From the NCBI GenBank assembly GCA_903857865.1, contig CAIOGO010000017.1:1-64000 (forward strand): a stretch of 64,000 nt of DNA, written 5' to 3'. This document shows, piece after piece, positions 37,989 through 49,812 of this stretch. The notes under the pieces are model-generated. The model was not told the origin of the DNA. It worked only from the letters and a program-made list of their open reading frames with translations, and did no database searches. Position 1 is the stretch's first letter. The number at the start of each line of letters is the position of its first letter. The stretch comes from an uncultured bacterium. GTDB taxonomy: Bacteria; Bipolaricaulota; Bipolaricaulia; UBA7950; UBA9294. Both the position numbers and the translations under genes were made by a program.

Positions 37989-41147
<3,159 letters not shown>

Positions 41148-41879: not shown

Positions 41880-42016
41880 CAACTCCCCTTCCCGATGAAC
41901 CGCTCTGTGAGCAGCTCGCCCGACGCGATCTCGGGGCCATGCTTGACAGAGTAGCCAAGGCTTGCGAGCCAGCCTAGGGCGGCTTCGACGATGGATTCGG
42001 TGAATGAGGAGTTCAT
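41879..42016 (-). pseudogene. Truncated hsdR 5' end (copy 2)
   Basis: 45 codons beginning [20 protein letters not shown], matching the N-terminus of the intact HsdR ([18 protein letters not shown]) and of a third copy at 43880. It ends after LLTERFIGKGS, with none of the nuclease or helicase domains. Its ATG overlaps the mrr stop (ATGA), so it looks like a once-normal mrr-hsdR junction that lost the rest of hsdR. Confidence 0.8.
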
Positions 42017-42981
42017 GCGCGCACAAGTCCTGGCTTCAGGTCGAGCCGCTCTCGAAATTCCGGCGGAATGTCATCCCAGTGCTCGACCAGCAGGTCCACG
42101 AGCTGGCGCCCGTTGATCAGACCGATCCGCGGGAAACCCACCTCCAGCGCCACCTCTGCAGCGGTCCCCTGGAAGTCCGCCGTGGTGATAAACGCACCCT
42201 GACCGCCGAAGGGGATCGCCTGCCGGAGCTGCTTGACGACACTGGCCGCAATCTTCGAGCCAAGCTTGTAGCGCTTGGCTTGGACGAAGACCTTCACTTT
42301 CGCCAAATTGGCCACGTTGAGTTCCCCGGTTGCGTCCACGCCCCCGTCGCCTGTTCTGCCCGTTACCTCGGAACCCTCGAAGCCGAGAGCCGTGAGCAAG
42401 TGGCCCACCAGGATCTCGAACTCCTTGTCGTCCAACTCGAGAACCTGCTCCAGCACGACGCGATACGGGTCGTAGTGTGCAGTCGCGGTCACTGGATCTG
42501 CCTTCCCAATGGCAGCCAGGAACTCCTCCCGCTGCGAGACCGCGAACACCGTGAGCGAGGACCGAATCGTGTTCTGGAACGGGACCGAGAAGTCGCCACG
42601 CTTCAGTCTCCCCTTCGCCCACGACACTCGCCGACGCTGCCCGTACGGGCAGCCGTCGTTGCCCACAGCGAAGAAGTAAGACGGATCCGAAGCGACTTGC
42701 CCGTAGTGCAGCCACTCGGTGTCGGCGGCCGGCGTGATCACGTAGTCGCCCGCCTGGATCTCGAACAAGAACCGCGCGATCTGCCCGACATAGTTGCCGA
42801 TGACGATGGCACTTCGTTGGTCGGGGTACGCAGCCTGCACCACGGGATAGAGTTCGTCTCTGCTCCGGATGCCGCTCAGATCCCGTGCGATCTCGCCCCA
42901 GCCGATCCCCGCATAGCCACCACGTAGGAAGTGTTCCGCGAACTGCCCGCCGTTTGCTCGGACGCACCAGACGTTGGTCAT
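42013..42981 (-). CDS. Mrr-type restriction endonuclease
   Basis: 322 residues. The N-terminal 150 residues are a target-recognition or sensor-like region (WCVRANGGQFAEHFLRGGYA, DYVITPAADTEWLHYG). The C-terminal Mrr_cat nuclease domain is LLTALGFEGSEVTGRTGDGG with VDATGELN and VFVQAKRYKLGSKI: the D...QAK active site of the PD-(D/E)XK group. It probably cleaves modified or foreign DNA. GGAGG precedes the ATG at 42981. It lies inside the type I locus and shares its direction. Confidence 0.88.
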   Translation of the reverse strand: MTNVWCVRANGGQFAEHFLRGGYAGIGWGEIARDLSGIRSRDELYPVVQAAYPDQRSAIVIGNYVGQIARFLFEIQAGDYVITPAADTEWLHYGQVASDPSYFFAVGNDGCPYGQRRRVSWAKGRLKRGDFSVPFQNTIRSSLTVFAVSQREEFLAAIGKADPVTATAHYDPYRVVLEQVLELDDKEFEILVGHLLTALGFEGSEVTGRTGDGGVDATGELNVANLAKVKVFVQAKRYKLGSKIAASVVKQLRQAIPFGGQGAFITTADFQGTAAEVALEVGFPRIGLINGRQLVDLLVEHWDDIPPEFRERLDLKPGLVRA

Positions 42982-43093: not shown

Positions 43094-43576
43094 CTAGTCA
43101 TTCCAGTGTGCCGCGATGTATCCGGCAATCCCAGGACCTGGATGGAACGCCGGATAGATCCTCTGGTACACGCCCAACGCATCGACAAGCGAGGTCTTGG
43201 GCAAGACAGCGGTGTGGCGAAGAAGGTACAGAAACGCAATCCCTGGCCCTCGGGACTCTCCTTGGTTGCAGTGGACGAGGACCTTCTTCCCGCTCGTCAG
43301 CTTCTCGTGGATGAACGCGATCGCCGCCTCGACCAGCTCTTCGTGGATGTAGCTGGGATCGGGGACATCGACGAGGTTCAGGTACAGGCGGTCTCCGCGC
43401 ACGGCAAGGAAGTACTCGGGATGACCCTTGGGAGCGCCCTGTGTCGTGTACCCGAGAAGTTTCCGGTGGTACGGGTCCTTGCACGCGTGGACAACGGCCC
43501 AGCCTTCTCTGCCATCAACCTGATACTCGAAGTCGCCCTGATGGCCTACGAAGAGGTTGGGGAAGATCTCAGTCAT
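43094..43576 (-). CDS. Dual-specificity/tyrosine phosphatase-like protein
   Basis: 160 residues. The phosphatase P-loop is VHCNQGESRGP (HCx5R). It starts MTEIFPNLFVGHQGDFEYQV and includes a likely general-acid loop (VDVPDPSY). Such small DSP-like enzymes hydrolyse phosphate from protein or other phosphoesters. Presence inside a restriction locus is unusual; NAD/ADP-ribose or RNA substrates are possible but unproven. GGAGGAGCC precedes the ATG at 43576, which lies within the end of the third hsdR fragment. Confidence 0.85.
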   Translation of the reverse strand: MTEIFPNLFVGHQGDFEYQVDGREGWAVVHACKDPYHRKLLGYTTQGAPKGHPEYFLAVRGDRLYLNLVDVPDPSYIHEELVEAAIAFIHEKLTSGKKVLVHCNQGESRGPGIAFLYLLRHTAVLPKTSLVDALGVYQRIYPAFHPGPGIAGYIAAHWND

Positions 43577-43880
43577 GGCTCCTCCGTGCAGCGACGAGCA
43601 TGCGATGTATAGCGTGGTCGCGTTCGATCACCGACGGCGGGTCCGCGCGCATCAGCTTGCGGAAGGCGTCCTCTGGAGCCTCGGCAGGGAGTCCCGGGTT
43701 GAGTCCAGCAGGCGCGTTCTGCAGCCGGTTCTCTAGACCTACGTCGCGGAAGTCTGCGTCGTTCCGCTCAGCGCCGAGCTCGCCGGCCGCGATCTCGGGG
43801 CCGTAGGGCACGGCATGGCCAAGATCTGTCAACCAGGCGAGGGCGGCCTCTTCGACTATGGACTCGGTGAATGGCGTCAT
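43569..43880 (-). pseudogene. Truncated hsdR 5' end (copy 3)
   Basis: 103 codons beginning MTPFTESIVEEAALAWLTDL and continuing through RKLMRADPPSVIERDHAIHRM, colinear with the intact HsdR N-terminus ([21 protein letters not shown]). It stops eight bases into the phosphatase gene, so everything after residue 103 has been replaced. The intact HsdR differs at many positions, so this copy came from a related allele and is not a recent tandem duplication. Confidence 0.85.
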
Positions 43881-44044: not shown

Positions 44045-45181
44045 TCAATCATCTAGTTCCAGATCGAGTGAACAGGGATCCCTCAGCATAAAGGCTCTGC
44101 CCTCACGAATGAGTGAACCTCGACACGACACAGTCTGCTGATTGTCATGAGCTTGGACGGCCTTGTGGTATTCTGCAGCGGGCAACTCAAGAAACACTTT
44201 CCGGGGCTGCCCGTCAATGAAGCCAAGCACGGTCACGCGCCCAATTGCCGCTCCCTCCGCACGTTCAAGCTTCACGACTGGGCCTCGCAACTCGAAATCC
44301 TCCTGTGGCGAGGTCTCACGGAAGAGCCTCGCTGCCTCCTCAATCACCGGGATCATGTCCCGTGGAAACACGATGCGCTTCGCGTCTCTACTCTGGAGCG
44401 GGCGGCTTTGCGCCCAGGAGAACCCTATCTCAACACTCCGCTCTGACTCATGGCCACCAGCAAGACCGAAAATCGCGTCACAAAGGTTTGCGCTCACCCC
44501 CTTTGGAACAGCGGCCTGGAACTCCTCAAACCGCCCTGTCGAAGCGGCCAGCTCAGCAGCTCTGCGCACAGCTGATACGGCTATCGACAGGGTAGTCGTC
44601 ACCCGACGCTCGAACGGCTCCTCAATCTCGAACAGCACACCTGTCGGCGATATCTCCAGGCCTGGAGGCACGCGGGAAATGACTGTGACTGTGTAACTTC
44701 CGAGTTCGGTTTGCCCCAGCCGGACTTGCCGCAGATATGCCATGGCTTGCTGCGGCTTGCGCGTTTGGTAGATGGCCCTTGGGGCAATGGCAGCACAGGC
44801 GCCCGCCATCATGAGATCGCGAGCGTTCGCGACAAGCTGGGCGCCGTGTTCGAGAGGCAGGGTCCCATCAGACGCATCCCCGTCTGCAACGCGAAGCCTT
44901 AGCACATCTGCCGATGCAGTCAGCAAGTCGCTCAGGATCTCGATTTGGGAGCGGTCCTCGACGATTTCCAGCGTCCTAAGAGCATCAGCCATCCGCAACG
45001 CGAAGTCCCCCAGACTGCGCTCCAGGGGGAGGGTGAGTTCGAAATCGCCCTCTCGGATCCACGTGGACCACAGAGATGAACTCGGTGGCACCTGGTGCCA
45101 GCCCTTTGCGCGAAGGTATGCAACGAACTCCAGGGGACGAATGGCAGCAAGGACATGGGCATCCCGAATCGATGCTCTCAC
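44045..45181 (-). CDS. Uncharacterised protein partnered with the DUF4365 protein
   Basis: 378 residues from a GTG at 45181 with GGAGGTC upstream; the GTGA overlap with the DUF4365 stop couples them. I do not recognise the family. It starts RASIRDAHVLAAIRPLEFVA, is mixed alpha/beta, has no membrane segment, and ends in a beta-rich region (RVTVLGFIDGQPRKVFLEL) and a very acidic tail (SLDLELDD). The middle (VTTTLSIAVSAVRRAAELA) is helical. No nuclease or NTPase motif was seen. Fixed pairing with a nuclease-like gene inside a restriction locus suggests a defence module or an accessory specificity protein. Confidence 0.75.
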   Translation of the reverse strand: MRASIRDAHVLAAIRPLEFVAYLRAKGWHQVPPSSSLWSTWIREGDFELTLPLERSLGDFALRMADALRTLEIVEDRSQIEILSDLLTASADVLRLRVADGDASDGTLPLEHGAQLVANARDLMMAGACAAIAPRAIYQTRKPQQAMAYLRQVRLGQTELGSYTVTVISRVPPGLEISPTGVLFEIEEPFERRVTTTLSIAVSAVRRAAELAASTGRFEEFQAAVPKGVSANLCDAIFGLAGGHESERSVEIGFSWAQSRPLQSRDAKRIVFPRDMIPVIEEAARLFRETSPQEDFELRGPVVKLERAEGAAIGRVTVLGFIDGQPRKVFLELPAAEYHKAVQAHDNQQTVSCRGSLIREGRAFMLRDPCSLDLELDD

Positions 45182-45675
45182 GGCTGACCTCCTTCTGCTA
45201 TTCGCCGCATCATCTCCTGAAGAGCCCCTGGCGTAAAGAGCTGCGCCCGGGGGACGCTCACGGTGACACTCGCCAGGTTCCCTCTCGAATTCAGGCCGCG
45301 GAGGGAGGTCCAGTAAGCGCAGTGGCGCATCACAAGTTCCTCTTCCGATTGGGTAAGCCAATCGGGAACTTTCTCTGGCACGACCAGAACCACAAGTATC
45401 CGTGGCACCAGGAAGTTCCCAGCCCGGAGTTCCTCGTAGTTCTTGACCTTTAGGGGATATCTGAGCTCGTGCTCGTCCATGACTTCGCGCGACGTGCACT
45501 TCAGCTGCAATTCCAGCCTCGGCGATCTCGTCGTGCCGCCGCCCCCGGCAGCCGCTATGCCCCAGTCTACGCTGTCGCTGTCAACCTCTGGCTTGTAGCA
45601 TGTGTACCCAGCAGCTGCAGCGACGGCGCGCACGTACGCATTGCTGAACTGCTCTTTCATTTGCGCTACATCCAT
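45178..45675 (-). CDS. DUF4365-type nuclease-like protein
   Basis: 165 residues. The DUF4365 pattern is KEQFSNAYVRAVAAAAGY, then SVDWGIA (Asp37) and RLELQLKCT (Glu55, Gln57, Lys59), which resembles a PD-(D/E)XK core with Asp and Q/E-x-K. The fold is known in defence-associated proteins and in some antiphage loci; activity is not established. Its ATG at 45675 overlaps the hsdS stop by ten bases, so it is translated with hsdS, and its stop overlaps the next gene by four bases. Confidence 0.75.
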   Translation of the reverse strand: MDVAQMKEQFSNAYVRAVAAAAGYTCYKPEVDSDSVDWGIAAAGGGGTTRSPRLELQLKCTSREVMDEHELRYPLKVKNYEELRAGNFLVPRILVVLVVPEKVPDWLTQSEEELVMRHCAYWTSLRGLNSRGNLASVTVSVPRAQLFTPGALQEMMRRIAEGGQP

Positions 45676-46949
45676 TGCGCCGCCTCCACTGGCACACACG
45701 CCAGCGTTTTCGTATCGAACGCGCCGGACAGCAGTCTCGGCAGGAGCGCGTCGCGCAAAGCGGCGAGTACGCGGACTTCACACTTGCCGGAGAGGATGCG
45801 ATCGTACAATGGCTCGCACAAACCGTTGAAAGCGGCGAGGGCCGATGCCGCTGGGACCACAACCGAGAAATTGTCTATGTCGTTCTTCCCGAGGTGAATG
45901 ACGGTCGTCGCGGTCTCAGTGGCTTCAACTTGGGCGAGCAGCGCAACAATGCTGTTGCGGACAAAGGCCGCTGAGCAGTTGCCCGTAGGAATGAACACGC
46001 ATACTCGCTGGTTGAGCCAAGCCTCGACGCCACCCCATAGGTAGGCACGGAACTCACCATCCATACCCACGACGATGTCACCCGGCCGCACCTTGTAGCC
46101 CTTTGGATGCACCTCCGACGTCCAGACACCGGGGCTCTCGTTCGGAAGGTCGCGAATGCGAATGAGCGGTGACCCGACCTGTTCGGTGTTGAACTCGCGC
46201 GATGCGTAAGGTGCGCCGTAGGCGACATCTGCGATGGCATAAACAGAACGCACCGGCCACCCCTTCGGGATCTTCCCTAACTCCGAATCCTCGAACGAAT
46301 CGGGGAAGAGATCGGCGATGTGGGGCGGGAGGCCAGTGTCGCGGCCTTCGGCCTTGGCGCGGACGGGATCGAAGTCGACGAACCACGACTTGAAGAGCGC
46401 TCGCGCCATGGCCTCCAGCATCTCGCTCACTCGCCGGTTCAGCTCGATCTTGTCGTCTAGCGTGCCGAGGATGTGGGCGATGGCGCGCTGTTCCGCGAGG
46501 GGACGAATCGGGATCGGCAACGCCTCAAGAAGCGGGATGCGCAGGTTGCTCACCGTCGACCCGGTACCCTCGTTCACGCCGATCTCGTGCTGAACGGCCT
46601 CAGATTGTAGGGCGTAGAGGAGGTACCGCGGCTCGGCGCGGCTTCGGTCAGGGCGCAGAAGCACCATTCTCTGGCCGAGGCAACACCGAAGACCGGACGG
46701 GATCATACACACTTGGCCCATGGGCGCTTCGCGAGTGATGACAAGGTCTCCTTCCGTAGGCGTGGCGCGCCTTGTGCGCTCTGCAAAGTAGGTCTCATCT
46801 GTGTAGCTGGGTTCTGAGAGATCGAGCCTGCCGTTGCGAATGTTCTGGCTGCGGAGAACGACTGCGCCGCCAGCTGTCCAAACGGGCGTCGAATGAGGGC
46901 AGTCGACGATCGCTTCGCAGAGTTCTGCCAGTCGAGCGTCACCCGCCAT
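45666..46949 (-). CDS. hsdS: Type I restriction specificity subunit HsdS
   Basis: 427 residues. Two target-recognition halves: the first has VVLRSQNIRNGRLDL and GDLVITREAPMGQ, the second LIRIRDLPNES, GDIVVGMDGEFRAYLW. The conserved helical spacer is ALPIPIRPLAEQRAIAHILGTLDDKIELNRR. It recognises the bipartite DNA target for both methylation and cutting. The ATG at 46949 overlaps the hsdM-tail copy by 11 bases, the same overlap as between the real hsdM and the nuclease gene. GGAGC is upstream. Confidence 0.92.
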   Translation of the reverse strand: MAGDARLAELCEAIVDCPHSTPVWTAGGAVVLRSQNIRNGRLDLSEPSYTDETYFAERTRRATPTEGDLVITREAPMGQVCMIPSGLRCCLGQRMVLLRPDRSRAEPRYLLYALQSEAVQHEIGVNEGTGSTVSNLRIPLLEALPIPIRPLAEQRAIAHILGTLDDKIELNRRVSEMLEAMARALFKSWFVDFDPVRAKAEGRDTGLPPHIADLFPDSFEDSELGKIPKGWPVRSVYAIADVAYGAPYASREFNTEQVGSPLIRIRDLPNESPGVWTSEVHPKGYKVRPGDIVVGMDGEFRAYLWGGVEAWLNQRVCVFIPTGNCSAAFVRNSIVALLAQVEATETATTVIHLGKNDIDNFSVVVPAASALAAFNGLCEPLYDRILSGKCEVRVLAALRDALLPRLLSGAFDTKTLACVPVEAAQWM

Positions 46950-47082
46950 ACCCAAGCTCCTTCCTGCCTTCACCAAAGTCCCGGCAGGCGGACAGGTTGG
47001 CTGCCACCTGTCTGCCGTAGCCTCGGCACAGGCAGGCGGCTTCGGCCTGCCGCTCGCGCAGCGTCGCGGTGAGTCGCTTCAT
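46939..47082 (-). pseudogene. Duplicated 3' end of hsdM
   Basis: 47 codons: [16 protein letters not shown], then an inserted GC-rich palindromic stretch (CLCRGYGRQVAANLSAC), then RKELGYGG and TGA. The real HsdM ends [20 protein letters not shown]...RELGYGG. The copy's start overlaps the nuclease stop (ATGA) and its end overlaps hsdS by 11 bases, keeping translational coupling across the insertion. Confidence 0.85.
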
Positions 47083-48204
47083 CGTTCATTCTCCTCGCGA
47101 CTGAGCTCCGCCTCGATCTCCTCAATCGTTGGTAGGCTGGCCTGGAGCTCCTCTGGCAGGGCATGGGTGAGCCGCGTATCCCATTCAGCTACGCTGATGG
47201 GTCTGGTGCTGCCACCGAGGGCATACTCGACCAGCACGCGGTTCTTCTCGTGCACGAGCAGCAGACCCAGGGTTGGCTTGTCGTTGGGGTGGCAGAGCAG
47301 CCGGTCTACCGCCGTCATGTACATACCCAGTTGTGCGCCATCGCCGGGCTGGAACTTGCGGGCCTTGAGCTCGATCACTACATACCGGCGCAGTTTAAGG
47401 TGGTAGAAGAGCAGGTCGAGATAGAAGTCGTCGTCGCCAATTTCCAGATGCACCTGCCGGCCGACGAAGGCGAAGCCCTGACCGAGTTCTAGGAGGAACT
47501 TCTGCATGTGCGCGACCAGGCCCTGCTCCAGTTCAGCCTCGCGACGCGGTGCGTCGGTACCCAGGAAGTCGAAGAGGTAGGGGTCCTTGAAGACCTGCAC
47601 TGCCATATCGGAATCCGGCGGCGGCAACGTGGCTGGGAAGTTGGTCTGCGCTTTGCCCTGCCGACGGTGGGCCTGAGCCTCGATCTGGAGAACCAGGATG
47701 TTGCTGGACCAGCCGTACTCCAGAGTTTTCGCAGCATACCAGAGTCGGTCGTCGGGGCTGCGGAGCTTCTCGAGCAACGCAAGATTGTGCCGCCAACTCA
47801 ATTGTGCAACGCTCTGTTGCACAATTTCGGGATCAGGCCATGCCGCCGCAAACGCCCGCATGTACTTCAGGTTGCGCGGCGAGAACCCCTTCATCTCGGG
47901 GAAGGCCTCGCGCAGATCAGCGGCAAGGCGATCAATGACCCGGCTGCCCCAGCCCTGAACGTCCTGCTTGTCCAGAATGCTGCGCCCGATGTCCCAGTAT
48001 AGAAGCACCATCACGGCATTGCTGGCGAGCACCACGCGCAGGCGTTGCTGCTGGATGCGCGCCTTGAGGTCCGCGAGCCAGGCCGCGTAGTCCGGCGGCG
48101 CGTCGCTAGTGGGCGGCGGCACGGGGAACATGACGCTGCGGTCGACGCGGCCACGCTGCTTGCGGTCCGGCACTGGATCCGATTTAGCGACCGCGCGTTC
48201 TTTC

Positions 48205-48215
<11 letters not shown>
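47079..48215 (-). CDS. YhcG-like PDDEXK nuclease (DUF1016)
   Basis: 378 residues. The DUF1016 N-terminal region is [19 protein letters not shown] and [17 protein letters not shown]. The C-terminal nuclease domain is [20 protein letters not shown] with [16 protein letters not shown]...E-x-K of the PD-(D/E)XK superfamily. YhcG-type proteins associate with restriction and abortive defence loci. The start at 48215 (ATGGCGGGTAAG) overlaps the hsdM stop by 11 bases. It occupies the place hsdS would normally have, directly after hsdM. Confidence 0.88.

Positions 48216-49812
<1,597 letters not shown>

What the first reader, a model, noticed from the sequence alone, without database searches (positions are those of the whole stretch)
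44045..45675. DUF4365 nuclease-like gene and an unknown 378-residue partner coupled to hsdS
Seen: the DUF4365 ATG overlaps the hsdS stop by 10 bases and the unknown gene's GTG overlaps the DUF4365 stop by 4. The DUF4365 protein keeps Asp37 and Glu55/Gln57/Lys59, a nuclease-like core; the partner has no recognised domain. Known: DUF4365-type folds occur in defence loci. Inference: the two form a defence module that is produced together with the specificity subunit and may use it or back it up.
Basis: partly seen in the sequence, partly recalled or inferred. Interest (0 to 1): 0.75.

Follow-up and report, generated by a model that had tools for sequence, protein, structure and literature searches.

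The report
Nuclease-partner defence pair behind hsdS
Behind the DNA-recognition gene of a bacterial restriction system sits a tightly coupled two-gene unit, a DNA-cutting enzyme and a nucleic-acid-binding partner, which recurs across bacteria as a self-contained candidate anti-virus module and most likely does not need the restriction system it landed in.

Summary
On the minus strand, hsdS overlaps the DUF4365 gene (A, 165 aa) by 10 bp, and A overlaps the partner (B, 378 aa, GTG start) by 4 bp. The pair is already catalogued as PADLOC phage-defence candidate PDC-M02 (A 5e-65, B 1e-134), but I found no published function. A has the DREN/DUF4365 nuclease fold of SPARDA (Z 13.8); D32, D37, Q57 and K59 are invariant in 73 homologues, and D37/Q57/K59 match the SPARDA catalytic D-Q-K. 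B ends in an OB-fold; its first 290 residues match no solved structure found here. A precedes B in nearly every locus examined, with a 4-bp overlap in 64 of 72. The pair recurs next to type I hsd genes (15 of 100 loci) by repeated independent insertion. It also sits in leuC-leuD, behind cysS, on plasmids and in prophages, so HsdS is not needed. B occurs in three architectures, sharing only an N-terminal domain. Best reading: an autonomous conditional nuclease module whose partner senses nucleic acid and assembles or aims the nuclease. That mechanism is inferred. The hsd locus carries scars (hsdR 5' fragments, an hsdM 3' repeat) suggesting stepwise cargo accumulation.

The parts
45178..45675 (-). 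A: DUF4365 / DREN-type PD-(D/E)XK nuclease, 165 aa (PDC-M02A)
   Evidence: Pfam PF14280 1.7e-23; PADLOC 5.4e-65; AlphaFold pLDDT 92.3; SPARDA DREN Z 13.8
44045..45181 (-). B: partner, 378 aa, GTG start (PDC-M02B)
   Evidence: PADLOC 1.3e-134; no Pfam/NCBIfam family; AlphaFold pLDDT 93.4
44912..45181 (-). B N-terminal domain, residues 1-90, the only part shared by all partner architectures
44306..44911 (-). B central domain, residues 91-292, with motif RLGQTExGS[FY] (154-163) and GVSANLC (228-234); absent from the short partners
44048..44305 (-). B C-terminal OB-fold, residues 293-378
45666..46976 (-). hsdS, type I specificity subunit; its 3' end overlaps A by 10 bp
   Evidence: PF01420, PADLOC Specificity_I 1e-93
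47079..48221 (-). YhcG/DUF1016 nuclease (PDC-S02), inserted between hsdM and hsdS
48205..49800 (-). hsdM (start approximate; the open frame runs to 50670)
43592..43875 (-). hsdR 5' fragment (~95 codons) directly after B; 70% DNA identity to the 5' end of the full hsdR
43094..43576 (-). dual-specificity-phosphatase-like gene
   Evidence: PF00782 3e-8
42013..42981 (-). Mrr-like nuclease (PDC-S02)
   Evidence: PADLOC 2e-150
41900..42006 (-). second hsdR 5' fragment, starting at the Mrr stop codon
37989..41146 (-). full-length hsdR (start approximate; the open frame runs to 41477)
47036..47083 (-). 48-bp repeat of the hsdM 3' end (48260-48307), 94% identical, flanking yhcG

Best explanation
A and B are one autonomous two-protein conditional nuclease module of the PDC-M02 candidate family. 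A is a DREN-type PD-(D/E)XK nuclease, harmless as a lone protein. B holds A through its N-terminal domain and carries the trigger part: a nucleic-acid-binding OB-fold plus, in most members, a conserved central domain. When B meets foreign nucleic acid (or its replication or recombination intermediates), it assembles or delivers A so that A cuts DNA, either on target or collaterally, and stops the phage or plasmid. The module entered the type I operon as cargo and uses its transcription and translation; it does not use HsdS for recognition. Shown here: module conservation, nuclease fold and invariant catalytic residues, OB-fold, modular partner, independence from hsd, repeated insertion. Inferred: A-B binding through the N-domain, the trigger, activation by assembly, and the defence role.
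For: PADLOC PDC-M02A/B; PDCs come from 'guilt by embedding' (PMC10855318, PMC12988326, PMC12255303). A matches SPARDA DREN (Z 13.8, 140 residues); D32/D37/Q57/K59 are 73/73 invariant, and NbaSPARDA D41/Q60/K62 are catalytic while DREN alone is inactive until tetramerised (PMC12205087); TmuRE Q62A/K64A was made as the inactive mutant (PMC10810196). Loci with intact A and disrupted B exist (L073/L143 with an IS110-type insertion, L116, L030), consistent with A being harmless alone. B has an OB-fold at 292-378. The partner occurs as N+central+OB, N+OB (Nostocales plasmids L010, L120-L126, L128) and N-only (L145, L146, L148), with the catalytic Q and K of A kept, except K to R in L148. A-B overlap is near universal. 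Settings without hsd genes.
Against: No experiment on this pair was found. The OB match is a common fold at moderate Z (8-10) and does not prove nucleic-acid binding. The N-only partners have no OB-fold, so nucleic-acid sensing by the OB cannot be universal. PD-T4-10, whose second protein has DUF6575 (a weak structural match to B), behaves as a toxin-antitoxin pair in which the second protein is the toxin (PMC9519451).
Confidence: 0.5

Rival explanations
1. Toxin-antitoxin module: one protein is constitutively toxic and the other its antidote (A toxin with B antidote, or, as in PD-T4-10, the second protein toxic). Phage attack or plasmid loss frees the toxin.
For: Toxin-antitoxin-like size and overlap; Nostocales copies sit between parA and integrase genes on plasmids; B's best distant structural match outside its own family is a DUF6575 protein (E 3.7e-8), and DUF6575 occurs in PD-T4-10, a bona fide toxin-antitoxin system against T-even phages.
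Against: Both single losses occur: B-seeded loci show about 13 broken A to 2 broken B, A-seeded loci show 3 broken B and no clear broken A with intact B, so no asymmetry remains once seeding is allowed for. The homologous DREN nuclease is inactive alone. B and DUF6575 are not joined by profile comparison (hhalign score 17.8 against shuffles of 10.3-19.3).
Confidence: 0.22
2. Restriction-like heterodimer: B reads a DNA feature (modification or structure) and A cuts there, as in modification-dependent (type IV-like) systems.
For: A is of the EcoRV/Hjc/DREN superfamily; B has a DNA-binding-type fold; most loci show no dedicated methyltransferase next to the pair.
Against: No known modification-reader domain was found in B; the mini and N-only partners leave little room for a sequence reader.
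Confidence: 0.15
3. Accessory subunits of the type I complex: A and B work with HsdS or the methylase complex.
For: Tight overlap of hsdS with A here (10 bp), in L038 and in L081 (4 bp each); hsdS-AB-hsdR order also in L027, L028 and L070; 15 of 16 hsd-linked cases on the same strand (p 0.0005).
Against: About 85% of loci have no hsd genes near; the pair also couples to leuC, cysS and mur genes; the hsd setting is scattered over the tree.
Confidence: 0.07

Closest known systems
PADLOC PDC-M02 (PDC-M02A + PDC-M02B)
   Same: Both proteins match full length, same order and adjacency; the recorded basis for PDCs, embedding in other defence systems, is what is seen here.
   Different: A catalogue candidate without a published function in the papers searched. 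This work adds the nuclease assignment, the OB-fold, short partner forms and the non-hsd settings.
SPARDA (short Argonaute + DREN/DUF4365-APAZ)
   Same: A has the DREN nuclease fold and its catalytic D, Q and K.
   Different: No Argonaute and no APAZ: A is the nuclease domain alone and B is unrelated to APAZ or Ago in any search made.
PD-T4-10 (PD-T4-10A + DUF6575 protein)
   Same: Two overlapping genes, small first and large second; B has a distant structural match to a DUF6575 phage protein.
   Different: The first protein is not a DUF4365 nuclease; no significant profile match between B and DUF6575.
[quoted passage not shown]
   Same: A separate defence module lodged at the hsdS-hsdR junction (PMC12255303).
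   Different: Unrelated proteins.

Membership tests
PADLOC PDC-M02 | Protein matching PDC-M02A models | tested here: met
   PDLC04278, E 5.4e-65, residues 2-164 of 165
PADLOC PDC-M02 | Adjacent protein matching PDC-M02B models | tested here: met
   PDLC04298, E 1.3e-134, residues 1-375 of 378; 4-bp gene overlap
PADLOC PDC-M02 | Demonstrated anti-phage activity | not testable with these tools
   No paper naming PDC-M02 was found
DUF4365/DREN PD-(D/E)XK nucleases | Pfam DUF4365 above the curated cut-off | tested here: met
   83.7 bits against 24.3
DUF4365/DREN PD-(D/E)XK nucleases | Catalytic D...QxK | tested here: met
   D37, Q57, K59 in 73 of 73; compared with D41/Q60/K62 of NbaSPARDA
DUF4365/DREN PD-(D/E)XK nucleases | Nuclease activity | not testable with these tools
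   needs purified protein
SPARDA | Short Argonaute in the operon | tested here: not met
   None among the window operon genes scanned
SPARDA | APAZ domain fused to DUF4365 | tested here: not met
   A is 165 aa and holds only the nuclease domain
PD-T4-10 / DUF6575 | Second protein belongs to DUF6575 | tested here: inconclusive
   No Pfam match; a structural match to one DUF6575 phage protein; hhalign score within the shuffled range
PD-T4-10 / DUF6575 | First protein of the PD-T4-10A type | tested here: not met
   A is DUF4365; only PDC-M02A models among its listed PADLOC matches
Type I restriction accessory subunit | Consistent association with hsd genes | tested here: not met
   hsd genes within about 8 kb in 15 of 100 loci, scattered over the tree

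The most novel reading that the evidence does not exclude
PDC-M02 is a 'constant nuclease, exchangeable sensor' defence family: the DREN nuclease A is always paired with the same ~90-residue adaptor domain, and what follows that domain (central + OB, OB alone, nothing, or possibly another regulator as in L147) sets the trigger. The cassette spreads by inserting behind host genes, restriction genes and housekeeping operons alike, and borrows their expression.
Probability: 0.35. Interest if true: 0.68.

Novelty: new member of a known kind. Interest (0 to 1): 0.5.

Why it matters
It turns a catalogue entry into a testable model: a stand-alone DREN nuclease kept in check or aimed by a partner whose minimal form nature has already made, about 110 residues in some Alphaproteobacteria. 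It also warns that overlap with hsdS does not imply use of hsdS, since the same cassette couples just as tightly to leuC, cysS and mur genes. The hsdR and hsdM end fragments suggest a way that type I loci accumulate extra defence genes.

Tried and rejected
Asymmetric decay as a test of toxin versus antidote: the B-seeded set looked strongly asymmetric (about 13 broken A to 2 broken B), but A-seeded searches gave the reverse, so it was dropped as a seeding effect. A solved relative of B by sequence: none. Pfam on 80 B homologues: scattered weak hits only, one of them an OB-fold family. B as a DUF6575 member: left open. Presence in the host's own phylum: only this genome of 100, which points to horizontal acquisition. 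hsd-embedding as an inherited trait: rejected by the tree. Papers naming PDC-M02: none found; the source preprint for PDCs is not in the library. Viral-contig searches for DUF6575 relatives gave none.

Full report
OBSERVATION. The genes lie on the minus strand as described: hsdM, yhcG (DUF1016), hsdS, A (DUF4365), B. hsdS overlaps A by 10 bp (45666-45675) and A overlaps B by 4 bp (45178-45181). A scores 83.7 bits against Pfam DUF4365 (cut-off 24.3); B has no Pfam or NCBIfam family. PADLOC identifies the two as PDC-M02A (5.4e-65) and PDC-M02B (1.3e-134) over their full length. PDCs are candidates found by 'guilt by embedding' (PMC10855318, PMC12988326, PMC12255303). No paper in the library names PDC-M02.

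RECURRENCE. Only this genome out of 100 in its phylum carries B. Elsewhere B homologues occur on 27 plasmid records, in two Mycobacterium prophage records, in 227 GTDB contig stretches (best 80 fetched) and in 20 viral contigs. A stands immediately upstream of B in almost every locus where the contig allows it, and an NTGA overlap joins them in 64 of 72.

PROTEIN A. In 73 homologues D32, D37, Q57 and K59 never vary; Glu55 does. The model (pLDDT 92.3) matches the DREN nuclease domain of SPARDA best (Z 13.8, 3.5 A, 140 residues), then archaeal Hjc resolvases (Z about 11) and the homing endonuclease I-Ssp6803I (Z 9.9). [quoted passage not shown] in TmuRE-Ago the inactive mutant is Q62A/K64A (PMC10810196). 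The spacing in A (D37, Q57, K59) fits. That A is a nuclease is inference from fold and residues.

PROTEIN B. The model is confident (pLDDT 93.4). Residues 292-378 form an OB-fold like single-strand-binding and anticodon-binding proteins (Z 8-10). Nothing solved was listed for residues 1-290, but that part was barely tested because the OB-fold fills the hit list. Against predicted viral proteins, a Leptospira phage LE1 protein matches along the whole length (1.2e-24) and a DUF6575 phage protein more weakly (3.7e-8). DUF6575 is listed among the new defence domains of Vassallo et al. (PMC9519451). A DUF6575 protein found here (L113), and the gene before it, match PD-T4-10_B and _A in PADLOC. PD-T4-10 is a two-gene toxin-antitoxin system whose second protein is toxic. 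Profile comparison of B with four DUF6575 proteins did not exceed shuffled controls (17.8 against 10.3-19.3), so the link is open.

PARTNER ARCHITECTURES. Three forms were found. Full: N (1-90), central (91-292), OB (293-378). Short: in Nostocales plasmids the profile jumps from position 90 to 295 with no gap (L010, L120-L126, L128); the two sequence groups have A genes only moderately alike, so this is a maintained form rather than one accident. N-only: in Nitrobacteraceae relatives the partner is about 110-127 residues and ends after the N-domain (L145, L146, L148); in L147 the same frame runs on into a response-regulator-like sequence, and L133 has an N-domain followed by other sequence. 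A keeps Q and K in all of these except L148, where K is R. The common denominator is A plus the N-domain, which I read as the A-binding part; the rest is then the trigger. This step is inference.

TOXIN-ANTITOXIN OR CONDITIONAL COMPLEX. Loci seeded with B show about 13 broken or missing A against 2 broken B, but loci seeded with A show broken B instead (L116, L138, L143). Allowing for seeding there is no asymmetry. Nitrobacter Nb-311A keeps an intact A with B split by an IS110-type element (L073/L143). Together with the inactivity of lone DREN this favours a conditional complex over a simple addiction pair, but assembly errors in metagenome contigs add noise.

RELATION TO TYPE I RESTRICTION. 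Of 100 B-seeded loci, 15 have hsd genes within about 8 kb, 14 of them on the same strand (15 of 16 with the window; p 0.0005). hsdS-AB-hsdR order is seen here and in L027, L028, L038 and L070 (A lost in L070), and half of it in L059 and L081, where contigs end. hsdS overlaps A by 4 bp in L038 and L081. On a tree of 90 B proteins the seven embedded rows need seven changes and fourteen hsd-linked rows need thirteen: the setting arose again and again. The same cassette also sits between leuC and leuD (L045, L068, L083), behind cysS (L044, coupled), behind a Mur ligase (L064, 4-bp overlap) and behind a NAPRTase gene (L086). Tight coupling to the upstream gene is therefore a property of the cassette, not a sign of HsdS use.

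HOW CARGO GETS IN. The window holds three copies of the hsdR 5' end: the full gene (from about 41140), a fragment after B (43592-43875, 70% DNA identity) and a fragment beginning at the Mrr stop (41900-42006). yhcG is flanked by a 48-bp, 94% repeat of the hsdM 3' end (47036-47083 and 48260-48307). L081 and L087 carry similar hsdM 3' copies, in L087 directly before A. In L013, the nearest relative of the window pair, a 130-bp, 83% repeat covering the xseA 5' end flanks AB. Direct repeats within 800 bp on both sides occur for 5 of 77 AB loci against 8 of 1089 control segments from the same loci (Fisher p 0.0009). I read these as recombination scars of cargo that inserts in front of or behind a gene and duplicates its end. 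The numbers are small and the mechanism is not shown.

VERDICT. A real, conserved, already catalogued candidate defence module; the defence reading is likely and the HsdS link unlikely. New here are the nuclease and OB assignments, the exchangeable partner architecture, the housekeeping-operon settings and the end-duplication scars.

Noticed in passing
window 43592-43875 and 41900-42006 (-): Two truncated hsdR 5' ends lie between B and the full hsdR, each next to accessory genes, as if cargo had accumulated stepwise in front of hsdR.
   Followed up: partly
window 47036-47083 and 48260-48307: A 48-bp, 94% repeat of the hsdM 3' end flanks the YhcG/DUF1016 gene; similar hsdM 3' copies in L081 (4543-4618/6102-6177) and L087 (5688-5773/7385-7470).
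   Followed up: partly
window 41060-41100 (hsdR) and about 48750 (hsdM): In-frame '[12 protein letters not shown]' and '[13 protein letters not shown]' segments, apparently the same interspersed repeat in opposite orientations, sit inside hsdR and hsdM.
   Followed up: no
window 42013-42981 and 43094-43576 (-): An Mrr-like PDC-S02 nuclease and a dual-specificity-phosphatase-like gene form a second cargo block in the same type I locus.
   Followed up: no
L045, L068, L083: The A-B pair lies between leuC and leuD in a Methylomonas, a Paracoccus and a Roseovarius genome.
   Followed up: partly
L010, L120-L126, L128: Nostocales plasmids carry A with a ~176-180 aa partner lacking the central domain, often beside parA and an integrase.
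   Followed up: yes
L147 (-), partner open frame: The N-domain of the partner runs in one open frame into a response-regulator-like receiver plus LuxR-type sequence; may be a fusion or an accident of deletion.
   Followed up: no
L063 12548-13657: A second full-length B copy without a nearby A in Candidatus Sulfopaludibacter.
   Followed up: no
L070 6632-10054: Caldilineaceae locus with hsdS-B-DUF1828 gene-hsdR in which A is missing.
   Followed up: partly
L011 398-2160: The pair forms genes 1-2 at the left end of a Mycobacterium abscessus prophage.
   Followed up: no
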